In this document: positions 2,329 to 11,776 of the stretch, piece by piece
Position numbering within the stretch: position 1 is the stretch's first letter
Layout: each line of letters starts with the position of its first letter
Assembly: GCA_943329505.2 (NCBI GenBank)
Contig: CALQED020000004.1
Coordinates: 1 to 15,720, forward strand
Source: Polynucleobacter meluiroseus
Lineage (GTDB): Bacteria; Pseudomonadota; Gammaproteobacteria; Burkholderiales; Burkholderiaceae
Reading direction: 5' to 3'
DNA length: 15,720 bases
The notes under the pieces: model-generated
Database searches by the model: none
What the model saw: only the letters and a program-made list of their open reading frames with translations
Told to the model about the DNA's origin: nothing
Program-made: the position numbers and the translations under genes

Positions 2329-3678
2329 CTATTTTGGCTGGAATTCATCTGGTGCCCCCGGGGGAATCGGTGGGTGTTCTTTCAATGAGTTTTGGAAATT
2401 AATGACCATCTTACGAATGGGGCCCCTCACCCATCCTTGGGTAGTATTGACATCCGATTCTTCTTTTGGATCTTGAACAATGTTAAATAAGTAGGGGGTT
2501 TCAAGATGGTTAGCTCCAGCATTCGGCTCGACCTCCCAAACAAAATGCATTTTCCAGTCTCGCCATTTCGCTGCTCTGAGTTCTGTTTTAATAAAGTACA
2601 CGAAACCTTCACGATTCGATTTCTCTTGCTTACCTAAAAGAAATTGACTTTGATCAAGTCCATCAATCACTCGATCTTTTGGAGTCTCTAGGTTAGCAAT
2701 TTGTGCAAGCGTTGGAAATAAATCCACCACATGGACCATCTCATTAGTGACTTTTCCAGCGGGGATTTTATTAGGCCAGCGAATAATCAGAGGCACTCTT
2801 AATGCACCTTCCATGGCGGTATGGTAAGTCCCCGTCCACATCCCCGCACTTCCTCTCCAGGGCCTGCGATATTCAGGACCATTGTCACTAGCAAATATGA
2901 ATACGGTATTGTCTGTCAAATGATTTTGATCAATGGCATCGATGATTTGCCCTACTCTGGCATCCATTTCTATTAGCGAGTCAGCAAAATCTCCCTGTTT
3001 AGAGATGCCCTCGAAATCGCGGTGTGGCAGAGTTGGGAAATGTAATTGCGTTAAAGGGACATATAGAAAGAATGGTTTTTTATTAGCATTGCGCTGGATA
3101 AATTCGCAGCTACGTTCTGTGAGAACTGCATCAATCTTGCGTCGCATCTCTAAATCGTATAGCTCTTTTTTCTCTGCTGGCTTTCCCTTGATACCTTCCA
3201 TGACATAAGGCGGCTCAACAATAGACTCGTCATACCCAATGGCATCAAAAAACATACTCTCGTTAGTGGTTCTTGGAATGCCATACCATTCATCAAATCC
3301 CTTATCTTTTGGATATCTGCCTTCTTTATCACCAAGATGCCATTTGCCATACATGGCAGTTACATAGCCCGCCTCTGAAAATAATTCAGCGATGGTCTTT
3401 TCCCAGGGAATAATTCCTTGCGGTAGGCCAGCAGGAACCGATTGAATAGCACCCGTTCTAATTGGATGTCTACCTGTCATGAGTGCCGAGCGAGTGGGTA
3501 CGCAGTCACTTTCAACATTGAAATTCAAAAAACGCGTCCCCTCAAGAGCAAGAGCATCAATGCGAGGGGTAGGCGCTCCACGAATGGCGCCACCGCCGTA
3601 GCAACCTAACTCCCCCCAGCCAAGGTTATCTGCCAGTATTAAAACTACATTGGGCTGGGTATTGTTTTGTGTATTCAT
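2329..3678 (-). CDS. Type I sulfatase (arylsulfatase family), no signal peptide
   Basis: A 449-residue alkaline-phosphatase-fold sulfatase that hydrolyses sulfate esters to alcohol or phenol plus sulfate. Residue Cys59 in CVPTRSALMTGR fits the CxPxR signature whose cysteine is oxidised to formylglycine. Also visible are the N-terminal metal segment (Asp17-Asn18), GKWHLG (Lys112, His114), His213, and Asp265-Asn266 of ASDNG, all expected active-site elements. The N-terminal pair is Asp-Asn where many sulfatases have Asp-Asp. No signal peptide is seen, so it is probably cytoplasmic; Pseudomonas aeruginosa AtsA also lacks one. ATG 3678 is preferred over an in-frame TTG at 3690; neither has a strong ribosome-binding site. 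It starts 22 bp after the Bug receptor gene, so the pair is probably one transcript. No formylglycine-generating-enzyme gene is in the window. The 3' end faces the thiolase gene with a 21-bp gap. Substrate unknown. Confidence 0.88.
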   Translation of the reverse strand: MNTQNNTQPNVVLILADNLGWGELGCYGGGAIRGAPTPRIDALALEGTRFLNFNVESDCVPTRSALMTGRHPIRTGAIQSVPAGLPQGIIPWEKTIAELFSEAGYVTAMYGKWHLGDKEGRYPKDKGFDEWYGIPRTTNESMFFDAIGYDESIVEPPYVMEGIKGKPAEKKELYDLEMRRKIDAVLTERSCEFIQRNANKKPFFLYVPLTQLHFPTLPHRDFEGISKQGDFADSLIEMDARVGQIIDAIDQNHLTDNTVFIFASDNGPEYRRPWRGSAGMWTGTYHTAMEGALRVPLIIRWPNKIPAGKVTNEMVHVVDLFPTLAQIANLETPKDRVIDGLDQSQFLLGKQEKSNREGFVYFIKTELRAAKWRDWKMHFVWEVEPNAGANHLETPYLFNIVQDPKEESDVNTTQGWVRGPIRKMVINFQNSLKEHPPIPPGAPDEFQPK

Positions 3679-3700
3679 GAATGTGTTCAATCGGTAATTT

Positions 3701-4672
3701 TTAATCTATCGGTATTTGAAGGACTTTATTTAATTCTGACCAACGCTGTACTGAAGCCTTCAAAAATACTTCAAATTCACTTGCGGGCATCGGTCTTGCA
3801 GTCAATCCAGCATCTAATAATTTCGCTTTAATTTCAGGCTTTTCTAAAACTGCCCCAATTTCCTTGGACATTTTATTGAGAATGATGGGGTTTAAGTTTT
3901 TAGGTGTAACCACACCTACCCATTGATTGATCACCATGTCTTTGAAACCTAATTCACTTAGTGTTGGTACGCTTGGCGCAGAGACATTTCGTTGGGCGCT
4001 AGTAATGGCCAGGATTCTGATGCCACCTTTCTTTTGTTGAGAAAGTAGGGGTGCAAAACCCAGCACTGCCGCTGGCGTGGTCCCGCCTGTCAAGTCAATA
4101 ATTGCCTGACCTCCGCCCTTGTAGGGCACATGAATCCATTTGAAATTCCCAGACTTTGCTAGCCATTCACCAATGTAATGTTGATTTGTCCCCTGTCCAG
4201 AGGTCCCGTAAGAGATTGTGTCAGATTTACTTTTTGCTGCATTAATAAGGTCGGATAAAGTTTGGTAGGGTGCTTGGCCAGATACTGCAATACCAATGGG
4301 CTGTTCGCCTAGTAAAGAAACGCCAATCAAATCCCTGCCCAATCTCCAGCTCAGAGATTCTTTTGTGGCACTCATGATGGCGATACTGTCGGAGGCAATC
4401 GCAAAAGTATATCCATCTGGAGCGGCAGTTGCGGCCGCTTGCATGCCAATAGCTCCGGAAGCTCCAGGCCTGTTTTCAACAATAATCGATTGGTTTAAGG
4501 CTTTACTGAGTTCTAAGGCAATCAACCTGGTGACGATATCATTTGTTCCGCCAGCTGCCTGAGGGACAATGATTCGAATGGGGCGCTCTTTAGGCCATTC
4601 TTCAGCCCAAGAATGATTGCTAGAAAGAAGGCAGATTAGTAAGGTGAAGCACGAAGCGATATATTTTTTCAC
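3701..4672 (-). CDS. Bug/TctC-family tripartite-tricarboxylate-type solute receptor (upstream of sulfatase)
   Basis: A periplasmic solute-binding protein of 323 residues, the usual length for the Bug (TctC) family, whose members bind carboxylates and other small anions. A signal peptide covers residues 1-23 (KK, hydrophobic core, cut after HSWA). Family motifs follow in order: RPIRIIVPQAAGGTNDIVTR (about 30-49), VENRPGASGAIG (65-76) and APDGYT (84-89). The start is GTG at 4672, supported by AAAGG six bases upstream and by the signal peptide it creates; an ATG slightly upstream is out of frame. The gene leads the minus-strand pair with the sulfatase, suggesting that the captured ligand may be a sulfated or sulfate-linked carboxylate, which is inference. 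No TctA/TctB membrane genes are in the window. A 7-bp tandem repeat lies immediately upstream. Confidence 0.9.
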   Translation of the reverse strand: MKKYIASCFTLLICLLSSNHSWAEEWPKERPIRIIVPQAAGGTNDIVTRLIALELSKALNQSIIVENRPGASGAIGMQAAATAAPDGYTFAIASDSIAIMSATKESLSWRLGRDLIGVSLLGEQPIGIAVSGQAPYQTLSDLINAAKSKSDTISYGTSGQGTNQHYIGEWLAKSGNFKWIHVPYKGGGQAIIDLTGGTTPAAVLGFAPLLSQQKKGGIRILAITSAQRNVSAPSVPTLSELGFKDMVINQWVGVVTPKNLNPIILNKMSKEIGAVLEKPEIKAKLLDAGLTARPMPASEFEVFLKASVQRWSELNKVLQIPID

Positions 4673-5186: not shown

Positions 5187-5234
5187 GTTTGGGGTAACAT
5201 CAATTCATTGAAAACGATTAAGGAGCCATTGGAT

Positions 5235-5735
5235 ATGAGTCATACATTAGAGCAATTTGCAAGCCAATGCCACGGTTTTCTGAAGAGTAGTCCTGGGCCT
5301 ACTGGGCGTCAAAAAGTCGCCGAAGCCTTACAACAGATTTTGCTGGATGAAAGCTTTATTGCAAAGTATCTACCTCCCAGCACTGGCGAGCGCGAAGTGA
5401 TTTATCAAGATCCTGAAATGGGGTTCTGTATTGTGGTCCATCATTACCTTGGTCCAAAAAGTTCTGATCCACATGATCATGCCCATTCATGGGCCATCTA
5501 TGGGCAGGTGCGCGGTAGGACTGAAATGCGAGACTATCAAAAAATGGAAGATGCGAGTGCCGACAAACCAGGCAAAGTAAAAGTGACCCGATCTTATGCG
5601 CTCACTCCTGGCGTTGCTCACGTATACAACGAAGGAGACATACATGCGCCTGAGCGTAAAGACTCCACAAGTCTGATTCGCATTGAAGGCACAGATATGT
5701 CAAAGGTAAAGCGCTTTAAATTTGAGGTGGTATAG
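5235..5735 (+). CDS. Cupin-fold metalloprotein resembling the cysteine/thiol dioxygenase family
   Basis: A 166-residue single-domain protein. The segment DPHDHAHSWAIYGQVRG with Glu97 fits cupin motif 1 of cysteine-dioxygenase-like proteins (metal ligands His80 and His82), and His137 in GDIHAP is the likely third ligand from motif 2. Thiol dioxygenases of this fold use Fe(II) to oxidise cysteine, 3-mercaptopropionate or mercaptosuccinate to sulfinates; the exact substrate here cannot be told. No signal peptide is present. ATG 5235 is chosen because AAGGAG at 5220-5225 lies nine bases upstream; an in-frame TTG at 5208 has no ribosome-binding site. It is the first gene of the central operon, 64 bp ahead of the TauD-like gene. 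A non-catalytic or sugar/organic-acid cupin role is possible, but the HxH/E/H set looks complete. Confidence 0.65.
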   Translation: MSHTLEQFASQCHGFLKSSPGPTGRQKVAEALQQILLDESFIAKYLPPSTGEREVIYQDPEMGFCIVVHHYLGPKSSDPHDHAHSWAIYGQVRGRTEMRDYQKMEDASADKPGKVKVTRSYALTPGVAHVYNEGDIHAPERKDSTSLIRIEGTDMSKVKRFKFEVV

Positions 5736-5743
5736 AACTGGCC

Positions 5744-5761
5744 AATTACTTTAGTAATTTT
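5744..5761 (+). terminator. Weak A/T-rich hairpin between cupin and TauD-like genes
   Basis: AATTAC (5744-5749) and GTAATT (5754-5759) form a six-pair stem with loop TTTA, followed by only two T. It lies 8 bp after the cupin stop. At most a partial terminator or a processing site within the operon. Confidence 0.25.
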
Positions 5762-5799
5762 AAAATGATAAAACTCTCAAATCAGAGAAGGAGATAAGA

Positions 5800-6663
5800 A
5801 TGGCTAAATTAAAAATTCAAAAATTAGCAGATGCATTGGGTGCAGAGGTATCGGGTGTAGATGTTTCAAAACCGATTGCTAAAGAAGATCTTATGCAAAT
5901 AATGGATGCCTGGAAAGAGCATTTGGTTTTGAGATTTAGGGGGCAAGAACTCACCGATCCACAGTTACTTCAGGTTAGTCGTAATTTTGGAGAGATAGAT
6001 CCTCCGGGTCCAAATTCGTATGGAAAACCTTTTCTTGCAGATTTTCCAGATATCAATGTGATTTCCAATATTAAAGTTGGAGATCAGGCGCTTGGGGGCT
6101 TAGGTGATGGCGAGGCTATTTGGCATGCTGATATGACTTATATTGATACTCCACCCAAAGCATCCTTCTTGCATGCTTTAGAAATACCGCCCACTGGTGG
6201 CAATACTGAATGGTGCAATATGTACATTGCATATGAGGCCCTGCCTACCCATTTAAAGAATGAGATTCGAGGTCTCAAAGCGATTCATGACGCTACTTAC
6301 AATAGTGCCGGCATGATTCGCAAAGGCATGAAGGATGTTCAGGATCCACGAGAAGCTCCGGGCGCACATCATCCCTTGATTTCAAGGCACCCCGAATCCG
6401 GTTTGCCATGTTTGTTTTTAGGTAGACGTCGTAATAGTTACATATTAGGGCTGGATTTGGATGCTAGCAACCAATTGCTCGATGAGTTATGGGCACATAT
6501 TGATAATCCAGAATTTACATTTACCCAAGTTTGGCAGTTGTATGATTTGATTCTTTGGGACAACCGCTGTACATTGCATCGGCGTGATAGTTTTGATCCT
6601 CAAGCCAGACGCCTCATGCATCGCACCCAAATCAAAGGCAGTCCCGTCATTCCATTTGAATAA
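5800..6663 (+). CDS. TauD/TfdA-family 2-oxoglutarate-dependent dioxygenase
   Basis: A 287-residue Fe(II)/2-oxoglutarate dioxygenase of the TauD/TfdA family, close to the length of E. coli TauD. The facial triad is intact: His109 and Asp111 in WHADMTY and His260 in CTLHRRDSF. Arg271, eleven residues after the last His, is placed to bind the 2-oxoglutarate carboxylate, and Thr136 in GGNTEW matches the TauD threonine. The N-terminal LGAEVSGVDVSKPI segment is a family hallmark. Members hydroxylate a carbon next to sulfonate, sulfate or ether oxygen, so the product breaks down and releases sulfite, sulfate or a phenol. The cytosolic location and the thiol-dioxygenase-like, rhodanese and sulfatase neighbours favour an organosulfur substrate, but this is inference. 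AAGGAG at 5788-5793, six bases before the ATG, is a strong ribosome-binding site. Confidence 0.9.
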   Translation: MAKLKIQKLADALGAEVSGVDVSKPIAKEDLMQIMDAWKEHLVLRFRGQELTDPQLLQVSRNFGEIDPPGPNSYGKPFLADFPDINVISNIKVGDQALGGLGDGEAIWHADMTYIDTPPKASFLHALEIPPTGGNTEWCNMYIAYEALPTHLKNEIRGLKAIHDATYNSAGMIRKGMKDVQDPREAPGAHHPLISRHPESGLPCLFLGRRRNSYILGLDLDASNQLLDELWAHIDNPEFTFTQVWQLYDLILWDNRCTLHRRDSFDPQARRLMHRTQIKGSPVIPFE

Positions 6664-6669
6664 GATAAT

Positions 6670-7779
6670 ATGAAATCAACCATTTCTAAAGTAGAGGTTT
6701 TTGGTGTAGCTGTTCCCCTCGTTGGCGGTGGATTTAAGAATGCATACGTCACCAAAACGGTCCAAAAAAGTGCAGTGATACGAATTACTGATCATGATGG
6801 TCGTATAGGCTTGGGCAATATCGATCCTTCTCCTGGCTATTCAGTTGAGTCAATCGAGGATTCTCTTAAAGTGCTGAAGGAGACATTAGCTCCCTCCATC
6901 ATTGGATTAGATGCTTTTAATATTCACGAGCTATTAATTGCGATGAATAAAAAAGTAGATCATTTTTATGATGCTAAAGCGGCTATGGAGATGGCTTGCA
7001 CAGATCTGATTTGTCGAAAATTGGACATCCCGGTCTATACCTATCTTGGCGGTCAAGTGGTTGATACGCTCTTATTTAATGCGTGGATTGGCATATTACC
7101 TCCCGGTGAGGCTGCTGCAGAGGCAAAAAAATGGTTTGATAAGGGCTTCAGGTCAGCCAAAGTGAAGGTTGGTGGAAATATTCATGCTGATCGAGACCGT
7201 ATAGCTGCCATTCGGGCTGCCGTAGGTCCGAGCATGAAGTTACGCGCAGATGCCAATGCCGGATATTCAGTTGAAGATGCGATCGCTTTAGGCAAGCTAT
7301 TGGAGCCATTTGATATGCAGCTTTTTGAGCAGCCGGTCCATGCCGATGATTTAGTGGGCATGGCGAAGGTCAGGCAGGCAGTTGGCATTCCTGTGATGGC
7401 TGATGAATCTATTGTTGATCACGAGAGTTTGATTGCGGTGATTAAGCATGATGCCGCAGACATTGTGAAGCTAAAGGTCATGAAGCAAGGTGGATTTTTA
7501 AATGCCCGCAGGATGCTTGAGACCGCGAGTGCTGCAGGTCTTAAAGTGGTGATCGGGCACGGCTTTGGTTTGGGCGTGAACACAGTAGCAGAGATCATGT
7601 TTGCTTGTACTAGTTTCGATGTCCTGCCAGGCTTAGAGTGTGTCGGGCCACTAAAAACAGTTGATGATATTGTCACTCATAAACTCGATATTTCTAGTGG
7701 GTCGCTGGCATTACCTGATGGCCCTGGTCTTGGCGTCACCCTAGATGAAGAAAAAATGCAGAAATATACATTTTTTTGA
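6670..7779 (+). CDS. Enolase-superfamily enzyme, muconate-cycloisomerase (MLE) subgroup
   Basis: A 369-residue member of the mandelate racemase/muconate lactonizing enzyme family. The N-terminal capping domain (about 1-125) is followed by the barrel. Catalytic elements are visible in order: Lys164-x-Lys166 (SAKVKVGG), Asp194 and Asn196 (ADANAGYS), Glu220 (FEQP), Asp245 (ADES) and Lys267-x-Lys269 (VKLKV). Lysines on both sides of the site place it in the MLE subgroup, which abstracts the proton next to a carboxylate; known members are cycloisomerases, racemases/epimerases and a few dehydratases. His297 in IGHGFG replaces no known catalytic residue. The start lies six bases after the TauD-like stop, so the genes are tightly coupled and probably handle the same carboxylate. 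The reaction cannot be chosen from sequence alone. Confidence 0.88.
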   Translation: MKSTISKVEVFGVAVPLVGGGFKNAYVTKTVQKSAVIRITDHDGRIGLGNIDPSPGYSVESIEDSLKVLKETLAPSIIGLDAFNIHELLIAMNKKVDHFYDAKAAMEMACTDLICRKLDIPVYTYLGGQVVDTLLFNAWIGILPPGEAAAEAKKWFDKGFRSAKVKVGGNIHADRDRIAAIRAAVGPSMKLRADANAGYSVEDAIALGKLLEPFDMQLFEQPVHADDLVGMAKVRQAVGIPVMADESIVDHESLIAVIKHDAADIVKLKVMKQGGFLNARRMLETASAAGLKVVIGHGFGLGVNTVAEIMFACTSFDVLPGLECVGPLKTVDDIVTHKLDISSGSLALPDGPGLGVTLDEEKMQKYTFF

Positions 7780-7816
7780 AACTATCAATAAATTAAAGAT
7801 ATCTAAAGGTAAGGCA

Positions 7817-8770
7817 ATGCATCTCAAAAAAATTCTTAGTATTGTTTTTTTATCCTTTATAGGATTGGCAAATGCCCAAACCAGTAAAACGATGACTATC
7901 GTTGTGCCATTTGCTGCCGGCGGCACTGTAGACATAGTGGCAAGGCAGTTAGCGCCTGATATGGGTAGATATTTAGGTGATTCGATTGTGATTGACAATA
8001 AGGGCGGCGCAGGTGGCACGATAGCAACGGCGAAATTGGCCACTTCGAACCCTGATGGCAAAACGATTATGTTTCATCATATGGGTTTCGTTTTTAACCC
8101 AGCCTTATACGATAAGCTGCCATTTGATACGCGCAAAGATATTATTCCTGTCGCTGATATTGGTGTCACTCCTAATGTTCTGGTAGTTACTAATGCACTA
8201 CCAACAAAAAATATTGCAGAGTTTTTAGCGTACGCTAAAAAGAATCCAGGCAAGATTAATTATGGCTCTGGCGGTATTGGAAGTGCAGGGCATCTTGCCA
8301 TGGAGATGTTTGAGGAAGCTGCAGGTTTTCAGGCAACCCATGTTCCTTATAAAGGGTCTGGACCTGCAATTACCGATTTAATCAGCGGTCAGATCCAGGC
8401 GATGTTGATGACGATTGCGGCTATTAAGCCCTATATCGATTCAGGCCAAGTGAGGGCATTAGCCACCTCGGGCTTGACCAGAACACCATCCTTGCCAACG
8501 ATTCCTACCCTCAACGAGAGTGGTTTGAAAGGATTTAATTTTGAGCCTTGGTATGGCGTATTTGCTCCTGCTAAGACGCCACAAAAAACCTTAGAGCAGA
8601 TTAATTTCGCTGTAAATGAAGCTCTCAAGAACCCAGAAAATCAGGTGAAACTTGCTGGGCAGGGTCTAGAGGTAAAGCCAATGACAATGCCCCAGTTTGC
8701 TGCCATGGTTGATGCAGACTTACTTAAATGGGATAAGGTTATTAAGCGCTTGAACATCAAGGCAGAGTAA
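7817..8770 (+). CDS. Bug/TctC-family periplasmic solute receptor (first of two in the operon)
   Basis: A 317-residue Bug-family receptor with a signal peptide (residues 1-20, KK then a hydrophobic core, cut after LANA). Family motifs follow: VVPFAAGGTVDIVARQLAP (29-47), DNKGGAGGTIATA (60-72) and NPDGKT (78-83). ATG 7817 is chosen because TAAAGGTAAGG sits just upstream and it creates the signal peptide; an earlier in-frame ATG at 7745 would overlap the previous gene and bury the leader. It lies 37 bp after the enolase-superfamily gene. Bug receptors normally deliver carboxylates to TctA/TctB permeases or act as sensors; neither partner is in the window. Its ligand probably feeds the flanking enzymes, which is inference from context. 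Confidence 0.9.
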   Translation: MHLKKILSIVFLSFIGLANAQTSKTMTIVVPFAAGGTVDIVARQLAPDMGRYLGDSIVIDNKGGAGGTIATAKLATSNPDGKTIMFHHMGFVFNPALYDKLPFDTRKDIIPVADIGVTPNVLVVTNALPTKNIAEFLAYAKKNPGKINYGSGGIGSAGHLAMEMFEEAAGFQATHVPYKGSGPAITDLISGQIQAMLMTIAAIKPYIDSGQVRALATSGLTRTPSLPTIPTLNESGLKGFNFEPWYGVFAPAKTPQKTLEQINFAVNEALKNPENQVKLAGQGLEVKPMTMPQFAAMVDADLLKWDKVIKRLNIKAE

Positions 8771-8798
8771 TGCGTACTTCTAATAATAAGGATTGGTA

Positions 8799-10358
8799 AT
8801 GACTTTTCAATCGGTTGATGCAAAAACCTTAAAGCAATGGCTGCATGGAAAAACTGAAATTGCTTTATTTGATGTGCGCGAGCATGGTCAATATGGGGAG
8901 TCACATCTTTTCTTGGCAACCTCTGTGCCATATAGCCGATTGGAATATGAAGCGGCTCGATTAGCGCCTCGTAAGTCTGTGCGACTCGTGGTCTATGATG
9001 AAAATGGCTCTGGTGTTTCAGTCAAGGCTGCCCAAGCTCTCATCCAGCAGGGCTATCAAAATATTTATGTACTTAGCGGGGGCACGCAGGGCTGGCAGGA
9101 TGCCGGATTTAATGTATTTGCGGGAGTTAATCTTCCATCTAAAACTTTTGGGGAGTTAGTTGAGCATCAATGCCATACGCCCCGGGTGAGTGCGCATGAT
9201 TTAGTGAAGATGATGAGCGACAAAGAGGATTTCATCGTCCTAGATGGCAGGCCTCAGAGTGAGTTTAAAAAAATGAGTATTCCTGGGGCTCAATGTTGTC
9301 CAAACGGAGAATTGGCCTACCGGATTAAAAGTCATGTTGCGAGTCAAGATACTAAAATCATTATTAATTGTGCTGGTAGAACTCGCAGCATCATCGGCGC
9401 ACAGACGCTGATTAATTTAGGGATTAAAAATCCAATCTTTGCATTAGAAAATGGTACCCAAGGCTGGTATCTGAATGATTATGTGTTGGACCATGGGAAA
9501 GTGGCTCAATATGCTCAACCTAAAGTTGATGAGGAGATGCTGCTTGCTTCTCAAGCTTTAGTAAAAAAGTTTGATATTCCTGTAATTTCAGATGAGCAAT
9601 TTTTATCTTGGAAAAATGATACGGATCGTTCTTTATATCTCTGTGATGTGAGGACTGCAGAGGAGTTTGCACTCGATGGACTTCCTGGCGCGCAAAACAC
9701 GCCGGGAGGGCAATTTATTCAGGCTACCGATCAATTTGTTGGCGTTCGGAATGCGCGCATTGTGTTGTATGACTCTGATGGAGTGCGGGCAATAACCGTT
9801 GCTAGCTGGTTAAAGCAGATGGGACATGATGTAGCAGTGTTACGAGATGGCGTCAAAAGTACCGTTAGCTTACCGAGTACTCAGATCGATCATTTGCTTG
9901 GCTTGGCGCCTATCAAGACCACAGATTTGCAGGCAATGGATCAAAATGATGCTGTCACTATCTTGGATATTCGTGGCAGCATGCAATACCGTAAGGCCCA
10001 TTTACCAAATGCTCTTTGGGCTATTCGTCCTCGACTGCAAGAAATCATTCGTGGCGCTCAAAAATCCATCCTGATTATTTCAGATGATCCTGCGCTTACT
10101 TACGGGGCTCTATTAGAGCTGAAAGGACTTGATCTCAATATTCAGGTTTATGAATTACCGGACTCTGGGTTTCCAAAGGAGCTGAAAACCGTTTCTACGG
10201 AAGCCATGCCGCCTAATTCAGACTGTATTGATTTCTTATTTTTTGTGCATGATCGGCATGATGGTAATAAGGATGCAGCGCGTCGTTACCTAGAGTGGGA
10301 AACTGGCCTGATTGCGCAGTTAGACCAAGATGAAATTAACTTATATTCAATTCAATAA
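8799..10358 (+). CDS. Four-domain rhodanese-like protein with a single active-site cysteine
   Basis: A 519-residue cytosolic protein made of four consecutive rhodanese-like domains (about 3-110, 126-230, 262-360, 370-465) and a short C-terminal tail (475-519). Only domain 2 has a rhodanese active-site loop with cysteine, Cys191 in CAGRTRS. The matching loops of domains 1 and 3 read VVYDENGSG and VLYDSDGV, with Asp in the cysteine position, and domain 4 reads IISDDPAL. Rhodaneses carry sulfane sulfur as a cysteine persulfide and pass it to cyanide, thiols or proteins; cysteine-free domains are usually structural or binding units. ATG 8799 is supported by AAGGA at 8788-8792. It sits between two Bug receptor genes. 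The cupin at the operon head is of a type whose products involve sulfur oxidation, so the sulfur theme may be shared. Confidence 0.9.
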   Translation: MTFQSVDAKTLKQWLHGKTEIALFDVREHGQYGESHLFLATSVPYSRLEYEAARLAPRKSVRLVVYDENGSGVSVKAAQALIQQGYQNIYVLSGGTQGWQDAGFNVFAGVNLPSKTFGELVEHQCHTPRVSAHDLVKMMSDKEDFIVLDGRPQSEFKKMSIPGAQCCPNGELAYRIKSHVASQDTKIIINCAGRTRSIIGAQTLINLGIKNPIFALENGTQGWYLNDYVLDHGKVAQYAQPKVDEEMLLASQALVKKFDIPVISDEQFLSWKNDTDRSLYLCDVRTAEEFALDGLPGAQNTPGGQFIQATDQFVGVRNARIVLYDSDGVRAITVASWLKQMGHDVAVLRDGVKSTVSLPSTQIDHLLGLAPIKTTDLQAMDQNDAVTILDIRGSMQYRKAHLPNALWAIRPRLQEIIRGAQKSILIISDDPALTYGALLELKGLDLNIQVYELPDSGFPKELKTVSTEAMPPNSDCIDFLFFVHDRHDGNKDAARRYLEWETGLIAQLDQDEINLYSIQ

Positions 10359-10364
10359 GGCATC

Positions 10365-11348
10365 ATGAAATTATTTTCTCGTATAGCTCTCTATAGTATT
10401 TGGATACTCGCGGGTGGATTCATGAGCGGTCACCTGATGGCTCAGAGTAGTGATGCGTATCCTTCTAAGCCAGTCAGAATTATTGTGCCCGTGTCTGCAG
10501 GCGGAAGTACGGATAGATTGGCAAGGTTGCTGGCAGAAAAATTATCAGTTACCTGGAAGCAGCCAGTCATCGTTGAAAATGTCACAGGTGCGGGTGGATC
10601 GATTGGCGCAACCCAGGCAGCGAAGTCAAAACCAGACGGGTATACATTGTTATTACATAGCGATGCGGTGGTACTCAATTTGGCTTTGCTTTCAAAACCG
10701 AATTACTCCTTAAGTGACTTAACTGGAGTGGTGAAGGTTGCTGCCAACCCACAAATTCTGGTGGTACGTCCTGGACTGGGCGTCAGCACTCTCAAAGAAT
10801 ACGCTGAGTTAATCAAAAGTAAGCCCGGTATTATCTCCGTTGGATTACCTACTAATGGCGGAATTGGGCATATCTCCCATGAAATGCTTAGCAAAGCCCT
10901 GAACCTCAATGTGAACTATGTTCCCTATCCTGGTGGTGGCCCGGCAGCTCTAGCTGTCATGGGTGAGCATGTCGATGCCACCATGATCACAACAGCAGCA
11001 GTAACCGAATTTATTAAAGCTAAAAAATTGGTTCCGATTGCGGTGACAACGAGCTATCGTTCATCGGCATTACCAGATGTACCAACGATCTCGGAATCAG
11101 GCGTACCGGGATTTAGTGTGGAAAGTTGGCAAGGAATTCTGGCTCCCGCCTCTACACCGAAAGAGATAGTGAGAAAAATTAACCGTGATACATTGCTCAT
11201 TTTAGAAAATCCTGACTTTAAGAAGCAGATTGAGGCAATGGGTTATGGAGTCTCATCAGGAAGTCCTGAGCAATTTAACGCCTCCTTAAATGATGAGTTA
11301 AAGCGTTATACCCAAGTAATCAAAGATGCCAAAATTACTTTGAAATGA
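10365..11348 (+). CDS. Bug/TctC-family periplasmic solute receptor (second in the operon)
   Basis: A 327-residue Bug-family receptor with a signal peptide (residues 1-26, cut after HLMA). It shows KPVRIIVPVSAGGSTDRLAR (35-54), VENVTGAGGSIG (70-81) and KPDGYT (89-94), the standard family blocks. It begins six bases after the rhodanese stop, with AAGG overlapping that stop codon as ribosome-binding site, and its own stop overlaps the next possible ATG, so it is firmly within the operon. It differs substantially from the receptor at 7817-8770 (for example in the region after the first block), so the two are not a recent duplication and may bind different ligands. Confidence 0.9.
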   Translation: MKLFSRIALYSIWILAGGFMSGHLMAQSSDAYPSKPVRIIVPVSAGGSTDRLARLLAEKLSVTWKQPVIVENVTGAGGSIGATQAAKSKPDGYTLLLHSDAVVLNLALLSKPNYSLSDLTGVVKVAANPQILVVRPGLGVSTLKEYAELIKSKPGIISVGLPTNGGIGHISHEMLSKALNLNVNYVPYPGGGPAALAVMGEHVDATMITTAAVTEFIKAKKLVPIAVTTSYRSSALPDVPTISESGVPGFSVESWQGILAPASTPKEIVRKINRDTLLILENPDFKKQIEAMGYGVSSGSPEQFNASLNDELKRYTQVIKDAKITLK

Positions 11349-11776
11349 TCTTCCACTGCCTTCGCAAATCTACAATGAATTACTTATTCACTCTACTTTC
11401 ATTGGTCACAGCGCTCACCTCATTACAGCTTACTGCTGCTCCCAATATGTATCAGTGCCAAGTGATGAGTGATGCTTACATTAAGGAAGGCGGAGTTCTA
11501 GATATCTTGCGAGATAGTCCTAGAGTCGGGCAGAAATTTACTGTGGTTAAGAACACTGGCGAAGTGATTGGGGACATCATGGATCCCCTCAAAAATCCTA
11601 AAGTGATTGCATTGGGTAGCGAGAAAAATTCCTATAAAGTGCTTTGGGAGCAAAAGGCTGCTGATAAAAAAGGTGCCTTTGTTGATTACTTGAATATCGA
11701 TGAATTCATCAAAGGGAAAAAGAAGCCTTTTGGTTTCTTTTCGGGTAGCTTACTCTTAACGGGATTTTGTGAGTAG
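11345..11776 (+). CDS. Small secreted protein of unknown function
   Basis: A 143-residue protein I do not recognise. The ATG at 11345 overlaps the preceding stop as ATGA, which suggests translational coupling, and gives an Arg-Lys n-region before a hydrophobic segment (12-29). An alternative ATG at 11375 (133 aa) gives a leader without basic residues. Neither has a visible Shine-Dalgarno. Cleavage is likely near LTAAP (29-33). The mature part is small and lysine-rich, with one cysteine near each end (Cys38 in YQCQV and Cys142 in GFCE), which could pair as a disulfide in the periplasm. Position at the end of the operon suggests a periplasmic accessory, but membership may be incidental. Confidence 0.7.
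   Translation: MIFHCLRKSTMNYLFTLLSLVTALTSLQLTAAPNMYQCQVMSDAYIKEGGVLDILRDSPRVGQKFTVVKNTGEVIGDIMDPLKNPKVIALGSEKNSYKVLWEQKAADKKGAFVDYLNIDEFIKGKKKPFGFFSGSLLLTGFCE

What the first reader, a model, noticed from the sequence alone, without database searches (positions are those of the whole stretch)
5235..11776. Possible organosulfur capture-and-breakdown operon with an uncharacterised gene combination
Seven close or overlapping same-strand genes combine a thiol-dioxygenase-like cupin, a TauD-type dioxygenase, an MLE-type enolase-superfamily enzyme, a four-domain rhodanese and two secreted Bug receptors. Three of these enzyme families commonly act on sulfur compounds, and a sulfatase with its own Bug receptor lies next door in divergent orientation. 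A scheme that fits: Bug receptors bind a carboxylated organosulfur compound; the enolase-type enzyme isomerises it next to the carboxylate; TauD and the cupin oxidise at or near sulfur; the rhodanese carries or removes sulfane sulfur. Substrate and order are unknown.
Basis: partly seen in the sequence, partly recalled or inferred. Interest (0 to 1): 0.7.

Follow-up and report, generated by a model that had tools for sequence, protein, structure and literature searches.

The report
Two-part sulfur-compound breakdown gene cluster
A freshwater bacterium's gene cluster appears to be two separate sulfur-related gene sets placed in front of one shared sulfur-handling enzyme; relatives examined keep one set or the other, so it may be a pathway caught in the middle of being swapped.

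Summary
The seven same-strand genes are real and tightly spaced, but they are not one conserved operon. They are two modules in front of one rhodanese. Module 1, TauD-MLE-BugB, is contiguous in 12 of 12 Polynucleobacter genomes with a complete MLE ortholog, and lies directly upstream of the rhodanese in 5 of these. In 3 of the 5, yeiH and a divergent yeiE-like gene head the operon; their Salmonella namesakes confer sulfite resistance (PMC12880088). Module 2 is a thiol-dioxygenase-fold cupin directly upstream of a rhodanese in 12 of 80 cupin loci. Among loci examined only the window has both intact. One relative (L046) keeps a decayed BugB end between cupin and rhodanese (105/131 nt), and the rhodanese tree places the window between the two arrangements. 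The cupin probably joined an older sulfite-associated operon that relatives later lost. Best reading: both front ends release sulfite, which rhodanese and YeiH handle. Substrates are unknown. The sulfatase and seventh gene are not part of it. The sulfur theme is supported; the single linear pathway is not.

The parts
5232..5735 (+). Cupin with thiol-dioxygenase fold, 167 aa (a longer start at 5208 is possible); H81, H83, H138 invariant in 21 aligned rows
5800..6663 (+). TauD/TfdA-family Fe(II)/2-oxoglutarate dioxygenase, 287 aa; H109-x-D111, H260 and an RRxxHR motif present
6670..7779 (+). MLE-subgroup enolase-superfamily enzyme, 369 aa; KxK, D, E, D, K active-site motifs intact
   Evidence: motif assignment recalled
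7811..8770 (+). BugB, TctC-type periplasmic receptor belonging to the TauD-MLE module (possible longer start 7745)
8796..10358 (+). Four-domain rhodanese, 520 aa, one catalytic-type Cys at residue 192; shared partner of both modules
10365..11348 (+). BugC, second TctC-type receptor; kept after the rhodanese in 3 of 4 relatives with the TauD-MLE-BugB-rhodanese order
11375..11776 (+). Small ORF of unknown function with signal-peptide-like start; no listed match in related loci, probably not part of the system
3701..4672 (-). BugA, receptor of the neighbouring sulfatase unit (separate module)
2329..3690 (-). Type I sulfatase with CxPxR motif at residue 63; separate module

Best explanation
The locus is a composite operon made of two sulfite-producing front ends feeding one sulfur-handling back end. 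SHOWN by sequence: TauD-MLE-BugB is one recurrent three-gene module; in four relatives it lies directly upstream of the same rhodanese, in three of them behind yeiH with a divergent yeiE-like LysR gene; the cupin is a separate gene that lies directly upstream of the same rhodanese in other relatives; at least one such relative keeps a decayed 3' end of BugB between cupin and rhodanese, so there the cassette stood between them and was lost. INFERRED: BugB/BugC bind a carboxylated organosulfur compound in the periplasm; the MLE enzyme epimerises or isomerises it next to its carboxylate; the TauD-type enzyme hydroxylates the carbon bearing sulfur, releasing sulfite. The cupin oxidises a related thiol to a sulfinate that also yields sulfite (as mercaptosuccinate dioxygenase does). 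The rhodanese, with its single active Cys, combines sulfite with persulfide sulfur to thiosulfate or moves sulfane sulfur, and YeiH, where present, protects against sulfite. Because both front ends would give the same toxic product, either can sit in front of the same rhodanese, which explains the swap. A C4 dicarboxylate skeleton (sulfosuccinate/mercaptosuccinate) is my guess for the substrates, with no direct evidence.
For: TauD-MLE-BugB contiguous in 12 of 12 Polynucleobacter genomes with a complete MLE ortholog; 13 of 186 genomes have any match, one cut by a contig end. TauD-MLE-BugB-rhodanese contiguous in 5 of these 12: window, G231, G602, G606, G568. yeiH 36-48 nt upstream of TauD and a divergent yeiE-like LysR gene in G231, G602, G606 (TIGR00698 above cut-off in all three; PRK10837 above cut-off in the two LysR proteins tested). 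Salmonella YeiE/YeiH give sulfite resistance (PMC12880088, abstract and passages). Cupin directly followed by a rhodanese in 12 of 80 loci (7 at 83-87% identity to ours, one of these cut by the contig end; 5 alphaproteobacterial at 25-27%), and in G223. Thiol-dioxygenase fold. Scar in L046: 105/131 nt identical to the BugB 3' end plus spacer, score 132 against a maximum of 27 in 500 shuffles. Rhodanese tree: TauD-MLE-BugB-rhodanese rows basal, window next, cupin-rhodanese rows as the crown (100/99 and 98/97 support). Known precedents: msdo beside a rhodanese gene (PMC5373536), 3mdo-tst unit (PMC12947264).
Against: No substrate, activity or expression evidence. The TauD homologue is far below the taurine-dioxygenase cut-off (179.5 against 313 bits), its best PDB match is an (R)-phenoxypropionate dioxygenase (E 2.4e-41, E. 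coli TauD 6.2e-39), and the sulfonate-binding His70 of E. coli TauD (residue role recalled) is aligned to Pro at the edge of a gap. TauD-MLE-Bug in Variovorax plasmids sits with acyl-CoA genes; in f46 genomes the MLE sits with aconitase-, isocitrate-dehydrogenase- and methylisocitrate-lyase-like genes. In G151 and G171 cupin, rhodanese and TauD-MLE-BugB are all present but on different contigs. yeiE/yeiH occur in three related genomes only, not as independent events; G568 and the window contig lack them. In P. protegens a tst deletion had no significant effect on 3-mercaptopropionate (PMC12947264). Clade tests give only p-AU 0.024 and 0.032, on groups named after a first tree had been seen. 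Four of seven cupin-rhodanese gaps show no BugB remnant above shuffles in the BugB-only test, and the TauD-leader test on L046 is weak (15 of 500 shuffles reach it).
Confidence: 0.5

Rival explanations
1. TauD-MLE-Bug breaks down a sulfur-free carboxylate or ether acid, and its place next to the cupin and rhodanese reflects clustering of Bug-type catabolic genes rather than a shared pathway.
For: LysR/TauD-MLE-Bug beside acetate-CoA-ligase-like and enoyl-CoA hydratase genes in two Variovorax plasmids; acyl-CoA carboxylase-like and CoA-ligase-like genes next to it in family f13 genomes; tripartite transporter, aconitase and PrpD genes in f18 genomes; TauD slightly closer to a phenoxypropionate dioxygenase than to TauD.
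Against: Directly upstream of the rhodanese in five Polynucleobacter genomes and about 2.5-2.7 kb from one in three f18 genomes; behind yeiH with a divergent yeiE-like gene in three.
Confidence: 0.33
2. One reading: Bug receptors, MLE, TauD, cupin and rhodanese act one after another on one compound.
For: All are in one tight gene string in the window. Among 300 order-level genomes 15 of the 17 with the MLE ortholog also have the cupin, expected 1.4; by genus 5 of 6.
Against: The cupin is not in the operon in 4 of 5 TauD-MLE-BugB-rhodanese loci and is absent from G231; 0 of 80 cupin loci carry TauD or MLE at 50% identity or more within the stretch held; the cassette was lost from L046 while cupin and rhodanese stayed. 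The co-occurrence count has no control for shared ancestry or lifestyle.
Confidence: 0.12
3. The composite order is a metagenome assembly chimera.
For: The genome is a 64% complete bin in 237 contigs, and the intact composite was not seen in the other loci examined.
Against: The BugB remnant between cupin and rhodanese in L046, an independent assembly, shows that the composite order existed; the sequence just before the rhodanese matches that of relatives.
Confidence: 0.03

Closest known systems
msdo (mercaptosuccinate dioxygenase) clusters of Variovorax paradoxus B4 and Advenella mimigardefordensis
   Same: Thiol-dioxygenase-fold cupin clustered with a rhodanese gene; 8vni is the best sequence and structure match (PMC5373536, passages and section 25)
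   Different: The msdo clusters also have a cystathionine beta-lyase gene (and LysR in Advenella); the window cupin is only 22% identical in the structural alignment; TauD-MLE-Bug is not mentioned in the passages I read
3mdo-tst transcription unit of Pseudomonas (PA2602-PA2603)
   Same: Thiol dioxygenase gene upstream of a sulfurtransferase gene (PMC12947264, section 17); our rhodanese aligns end to end with 1yt8, which I recall as PA2603
   Different: A different cupin family, and no TauD-MLE-Bug cassette between the two genes
yeiE-yeiH sulfite-resistance pair of enteric bacteria
   Same: yeiH homologue above the TIGR00698 cut-off with a divergent yeiE-like LysR gene heads the operon in three relatives
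   Different: Not in the window contig; joined to a catabolic operon; the two LysR proteins tested score below the YeiE equivalog cut-off (343 and 349 against 480)
TauD taurine dioxygenase
   Same: Same family, iron ligands and arginine motif
   Different: Below the equivalog cut-off; His70 not conserved in the alignment; partnered with MLE and Bug instead of an ABC transporter
LysR/TauD-MLE-Bug operon of Variovorax plasmids (NZ_LR594673.1, NZ_LR594669.1)
   Same: Same three gene kinds in the same order, TauD 68-69% and MLE 72-73% identical
   Different: No rhodanese, cupin or yeiH annotated within the fetched stretches

Membership tests
Thiol dioxygenases (CDO/3MDO/MSDO) | Cupin fold matching thiol dioxygenases | tested here: met
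   48 of the 50 Foldseek PDB rows shown are named as this group, E 4.8e-11 for 8vni; the other two are YubC of B. subtilis
Thiol dioxygenases (CDO/3MDO/MSDO) | Three-His iron site | tested here: met
   H81, H83, H138 invariant in 21 rows and aligned with the PHNH and DIH segments of 8vni
Cysteine / 3-mercaptopropionate dioxygenase subfamily | Ser-His-Tyr triad (PMC10966181, start of abstract in search listing) | tested here: not met
   By inspection the strand after H138 reads S-T-S-L-I-R-I-E, with no His or Tyr; that strand was not superposed
Cysteine / 3-mercaptopropionate dioxygenase subfamily | Match to a curated family model | tested here: not met
   0 Pfam and 0 NCBIfam families at E<=0.001
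Mercaptosuccinate dioxygenase | Activity on mercaptosuccinate | not testable with these tools
   needs purified enzyme
TauD/TfdA dioxygenases | PF02668 above gathering score and conserved iron ligands | tested here: met
   207.7 against 27 bits; WHAD at 108, H260
Taurine dioxygenase | NF007104 equivalog cut-off | tested here: not met
   179.5 against 313 bits
Muconate/chloromuconate cycloisomerase | TIGR02534 cut-off | tested here: not met
   213.2 against 334.95 bits
MLE subgroup of the enolase superfamily | KxK, D, E, D and K active-site residues (recalled) | tested here: met
   KVKVG 164, DANAG 194, FEQPV 219, ADES 244, KLKVMK 267
Four-domain rhodanese (1yt8 type) | End-to-end alignment and CAGRTRS catalytic-type loop in domain 2 | tested here: met
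   16-513 to 18-522, loop conserved
Thiol dioxygenase-rhodanese gene pair | Adjacent genes | tested here: inconclusive
   Adjacent in relatives, but separated by the 3 kb cassette in the window
Tripartite tricarboxylate (Bug) transporters | TctA/TctB partners near the receptors | tested here: not met
   By inspection none of the window ORFs looks like TctA or TctB; 10 window proteins were scanned by Pfam. TctA is present in an f18 relative. Rest of own genome not tested

The most novel reading that the evidence does not exclude
The window is a transitional state of a pathway swap: a horizontally gained thiol-dioxygenase cupin was placed in front of an existing sulfonate-desulfonating operon (yeiE/yeiH-TauD-MLE-Bug-rhodanese-Bug), after which close relatives deleted the older TauD-MLE-Bug module, in part leaving scars, and kept the cupin. 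The shared selective unit would be sulfite disposal by the tandem rhodanese, not the substrate; and TauD-MLE-Bug would be an undescribed route for desulfonating carboxylated sulfonates in which an enolase-superfamily enzyme prepares the substrate.
Probability: 0.4. Interest if true: 0.7.

Novelty: new variant of a known kind. Interest (0 to 1): 0.52.

Why it matters
What tandem rhodaneses beside thiol dioxygenases do is, as far as I know, open: in the one deletion I read about (P. protegens tst), 3-mercaptopropionate levels did not change significantly (PMC12947264). Here the same rhodanese is paired in turn with two unrelated front ends that could do C-S chemistry and, in relatives, with a yeiH/yeiE-like pair, which points to sulfite disposal and gives a directly testable role. 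It also names a compact TauD-MLE-Bug module of unknown substrate, present in Polynucleobacter, Variovorax plasmids and other Burkholderiales, and gives a relative order of events (module gain, composite, module loss with a scar) for operon remodelling in a freshwater lineage.

Tried and rejected
Single conserved operon: rejected by neighbourhoods of 80 cupin loci and of the MLE orthologs. Sulfatase-Bug as part of the operon: absent (E<=1e-60) from G151, G171, G188, G231 and G242, though 5.6-8.9 kb from the MLE gene in G301, G254, G507 and G419 of one genus; kept as an open side observation. Simple insertion of TauD-MLE-BugB into a cupin-rhodanese pair as the last event: rejected by the L046 remnant and the rhodanese tree; an earlier insertion into an older cupin-rhodanese pair such as that of G223 is not excluded. 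Co-occurrence of MLE, cupin and sulfatase across 300 genomes looks strong, but I made no control for shared lineage or lifestyle, so I give it little weight. In the family-level sample 46 of 150 genomes had a cupin match at E<=0.001, but only the window's own was better than 1e-30; the rest look like other thiol dioxygenases and were not used. Structured RNA: 0 Rfam matches at gathering score. Promoter and terminator scans: fewer sites than in shuffles, not used. Plasmid search with the cupin: 3 records, at most 35% identical. Literature: (0 papers with 3 of the 4 terms muconate, TauD, rhodanese, Polynucleobacter), and searches listed no paper that by title deals with this gene combination; only open-licence papers are held and only the listed rows were seen.

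Rows dropped: the L199 and L200 rhodanese rows seem cut in a wrong frame (very long branches, 12 stops in L199) and the two alphaproteobacterial rows overran a stop; these, with L165, were left out of the tree that I rely on. In one search, 20 of 80 loci gave no cupin ORF in my mechanical gene picking and one more (L110) was picked as a wrong reading frame; for those loci presence of a rhodanese was judged from the tblastn table alone.


Full report
WHAT IS THERE. The window is contig C4 of a bin (G000, 64% complete, 237 contigs) in what is evidently the genus Polynucleobacter (same-genus genomes G231 and G188 have contigs whose lengths equal those of records named P. sinensis and P. kasalickyi). 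On the plus strand lie cupin 5232-5735, TauD 5800-6663, MLE 6670-7779, BugB 7811-8770, four-domain rhodanese 8796-10358, BugC 10365-11348 and a small ORF 11375-11776, with gaps of 64, 6, 31, 25, 6 and 26 nt. On the minus strand lie BugA 3701-4672 and a sulfatase 2329-3690. Pfam supports TauD, MLE, the three Bug receptors, rhodanese and sulfatase; the cupin and the small ORF hit nothing.

THE CUPIN. Its only PDB sequence match at E<=0.001 is mercaptosuccinate dioxygenase 8vni (E 4.2e-7). An AlphaFold model from 21 aligned rows has mean pLDDT 94.4; 48 of the 50 PDB matches shown are thiol dioxygenases, 8vni first, and the other two are B. subtilis YubC. The superposition is moderate (TM 0.74 by query length, 3.9 A, 22% identity for 8vni). 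H81, H83 and H138 are invariant. The Ser-His-Tyr triad named for CDO/3MDO (PMC10966181, start of abstract in the listing) is not seen by inspection. I therefore call it a thiol-dioxygenase-fold cupin of unnamed family, not a CDO or 3MDO.

THE RHODANESE. It aligns end to end with 1yt8 (E 9e-96). By inspection only domain 2 has a catalytic-type Cys (CAGRTR, residue 192). [quoted passage not shown] a tst deletion had no significant effect on 3-mercaptopropionate (PMC12947264, passages and section 17). In Variovorax and Advenella msdo is clustered with a rhodanese gene, and mercaptosuccinate is oxidised to sulfinosuccinate, which falls apart to succinate and sulfite (PMC5373536, passages and section 25).

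MODULE 2, CUPIN-RHODANESE. Of the 80 best cupin loci in genome contigs (425 confirmed in all), 12 have a rhodanese directly downstream: L034, L035, L036, L040 (cut by the contig end), L043, L045 and L046 at 83-87% identity to ours, and the alphaproteobacterial L088, L095, L101, L103, L108 at 25-27%. The others have other neighbours. None of the 80 shows TauD or MLE at 50% identity or more within the stretch held (up to 10 kb each side, often less; best matches covering 40% or more). G223 (57% cupin, 61% rhodanese) also has the pair.

MODULE 1, TauD-MLE-BugB. In the genus, 13 of 186 genomes match the MLE (E<=1e-50); in one (G242) the contig ends within it. In all 12 others TauD, MLE and BugB are contiguous. 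In order-level genomes outside the genus, 9 of 16 MLE loci show TauD (59-69% identity, one partial) next to it; several contigs end nearby, and the f46 loci have no TauD. Two Variovorax plasmids carry LysR / TauD-MLE-Bug beside acyl-CoA genes; no rhodanese, cupin dioxygenase or sulfite exporter is annotated in the stretch, while glutathione-transferase-type genes lie a few kb off.

THE SHARED RHODANESE. TauD-MLE-BugB lies directly upstream of the rhodanese in 5 of 12: the window, G231, G602, G606, G568; BugC follows in the window, G231, G602 and G606. In the other seven it is not next to the rhodanese; in G151 and G171 cupin, rhodanese and module 1 are all present but on different contigs. In G231, G602 and G606 a yeiH homologue lies 36-48 nt upstream of TauD on the same strand, with a divergent yeiE-like LysR gene. 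The yeiH proteins score 331, 341 and 336 bits against the TIGR00698 cut-off of 232.6; the two LysR proteins tested score above PRK10837 and below the YeiE equivalog cut-off, and the third is 80% identical to one of them. In Salmonella, YeiE binds sulfite and YeiH is the main driver of sulfite resistance (PMC12880088, abstract and passages). In three f18 genomes a 40-43% identical rhodanese lies about 2.5-2.7 kb from TauD-MLE, with LysR and PrpD genes between (Pfam on L183 only).

ORDER OF EVENTS. In the rhodanese tree (20 rows) the TauD-MLE-BugB-rhodanese rows branch first, then the window, then the six cupin-rhodanese rows (100/99 for window plus six, 98/97 for the six); the order among the basal rows is only partly supported. 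Holding the four TauD-MLE-BugB-rhodanese rows together is rejected only modestly (p-AU 0.024; with the window 0.032), and these groups were named after I had seen a first tree. Independently, the cupin-rhodanese gap of L046 contains a decayed BugB 3' end: 105 of 131 nt identical, score 132 against a maximum of 27 in 500 dinucleotide shuffles, with an in-frame stop. L035 has a shorter remnant (38 of 49 nt with spacer; BugB part alone 0 of 500 shuffles). L043 is marginal (BugB part 6 of 500). L034, L036, L040 and L045 show none in the BugB-only test (451, 374, 135 and 495 of 500). A TauD-leader remnant in L046 is weak (15 of 500). In the cupin tree the window and the seven cupin-rhodanese rows of its kin form a clade (97/87) within a larger group whose other rows, mostly Alcaligenaceae by name, have no rhodanese next to the cupin (bootstrap not fully settled). 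The simplest reading: an operon TauD-MLE-BugB-rhodanese, in part headed by yeiH, gained a cupin at its front; the window keeps both; relatives lost TauD-MLE-BugB.

HOW IT LIKELY WORKS. Both front ends belong to families that can end in sulfite: TauD-type hydroxylation next to a sulfonate, and thiol dioxygenation to an unstable sulfinate. A rhodanese can pass sulfane sulfur to sulfite (established rhodanese chemistry, recalled), and YeiH relieves sulfite stress. This would explain why one rhodanese is paired with either front end. The substrate is not shown; Bug receptors and an MLE enzyme suggest a carboxylate. Against it: the TauD homologue has Pro where the alignment puts E. coli TauD His70 (at a gap edge; residue role recalled) and scores well below the taurine-dioxygenase cut-off; and elsewhere the module keeps company with carboxylate and CoA genes without sulfur signature.

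CO-OCCURRENCE. In three searches of 300 order-level genomes (the same handles recur, so apparently one sample) the MLE (17), cupin (24) and sulfatase (27) overlap strongly: MLE/cupin 15 (expected 1.4), cupin/sulfatase 20 (2.2), MLE/sulfatase 11 (1.5); by genus 5 of 6, 6 of 8 and 3 of 6. These counts have no lineage or lifestyle control and are only suggestive.

VERDICT. Observation confirmed; the interpretation as an organosulfur system partly supported; the single linear pathway not supported; the sulfatase unit and the small ORF not part of it. New variant of a known kind (thiol dioxygenase/tandem rhodanese), with a partner module that I found unnamed in the papers searched and with direct sequence evidence of module loss in a relative.

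Noticed in passing
2329-4672: Sulfatase (CxPxR motif, no obvious signal peptide) with adjacent Bug receptor is its own unit: 78% and 47% identical and adjacent in G413 (L207), and 5.6-8.9 kb from the MLE gene in G301, G254, G507 and G419 (one genus, f13/g37).
   Followed up: partly
L187, L189 (family f46): MLE ortholog (60-61%) without TauD sits with aconitase-, isocitrate-dehydrogenase-, methylisocitrate-lyase-like and BKACE-like genes and, in L189, two genes like the split sulfopyruvate/phosphonopyruvate decarboxylase (all below NCBIfam cut-offs).
   Followed up: no
L183, L185, L188 (family f18): TauD-MLE beside a tripartite tricarboxylate transporter, PrpD-type and aconitase-type genes and, in L183 and L185, an alpha/beta hydrolase next to a 40-43% rhodanese (Pfam run on L183 only).
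   Followed up: partly
G000:C96 (L163) and G000:C116 (L164): The same genome has a second, 37-38% identical four-domain rhodanese and a second thiol-dioxygenase-like gene on other contigs; in G033, G074 and G050 such genes lie about 4 to 7 kb apart.
   Followed up: partly
292-1044: Solute-binding-protein-like ORF without a signal-peptide-like start; similar-looking ORFs lie near the second rhodanese in L159 (387-1124) and near a cupin locus in L203 (4275-5015).
   Followed up: no
L199:8321-9061: In G287 a TauE-type sulfite exporter gene (PF01925) lies directly upstream of a 49% identical rhodanese, another sulfite-linked partner.
   Followed up: no
L032, L033, L037, L038, L039, L042, L044, L047: Eight cupin loci, several named Alcaligenaceae, have an opposite-strand Bug gene and a flavin-monooxygenase-like gene downstream instead of a rhodanese (names from sequence inspection).
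   Followed up: no
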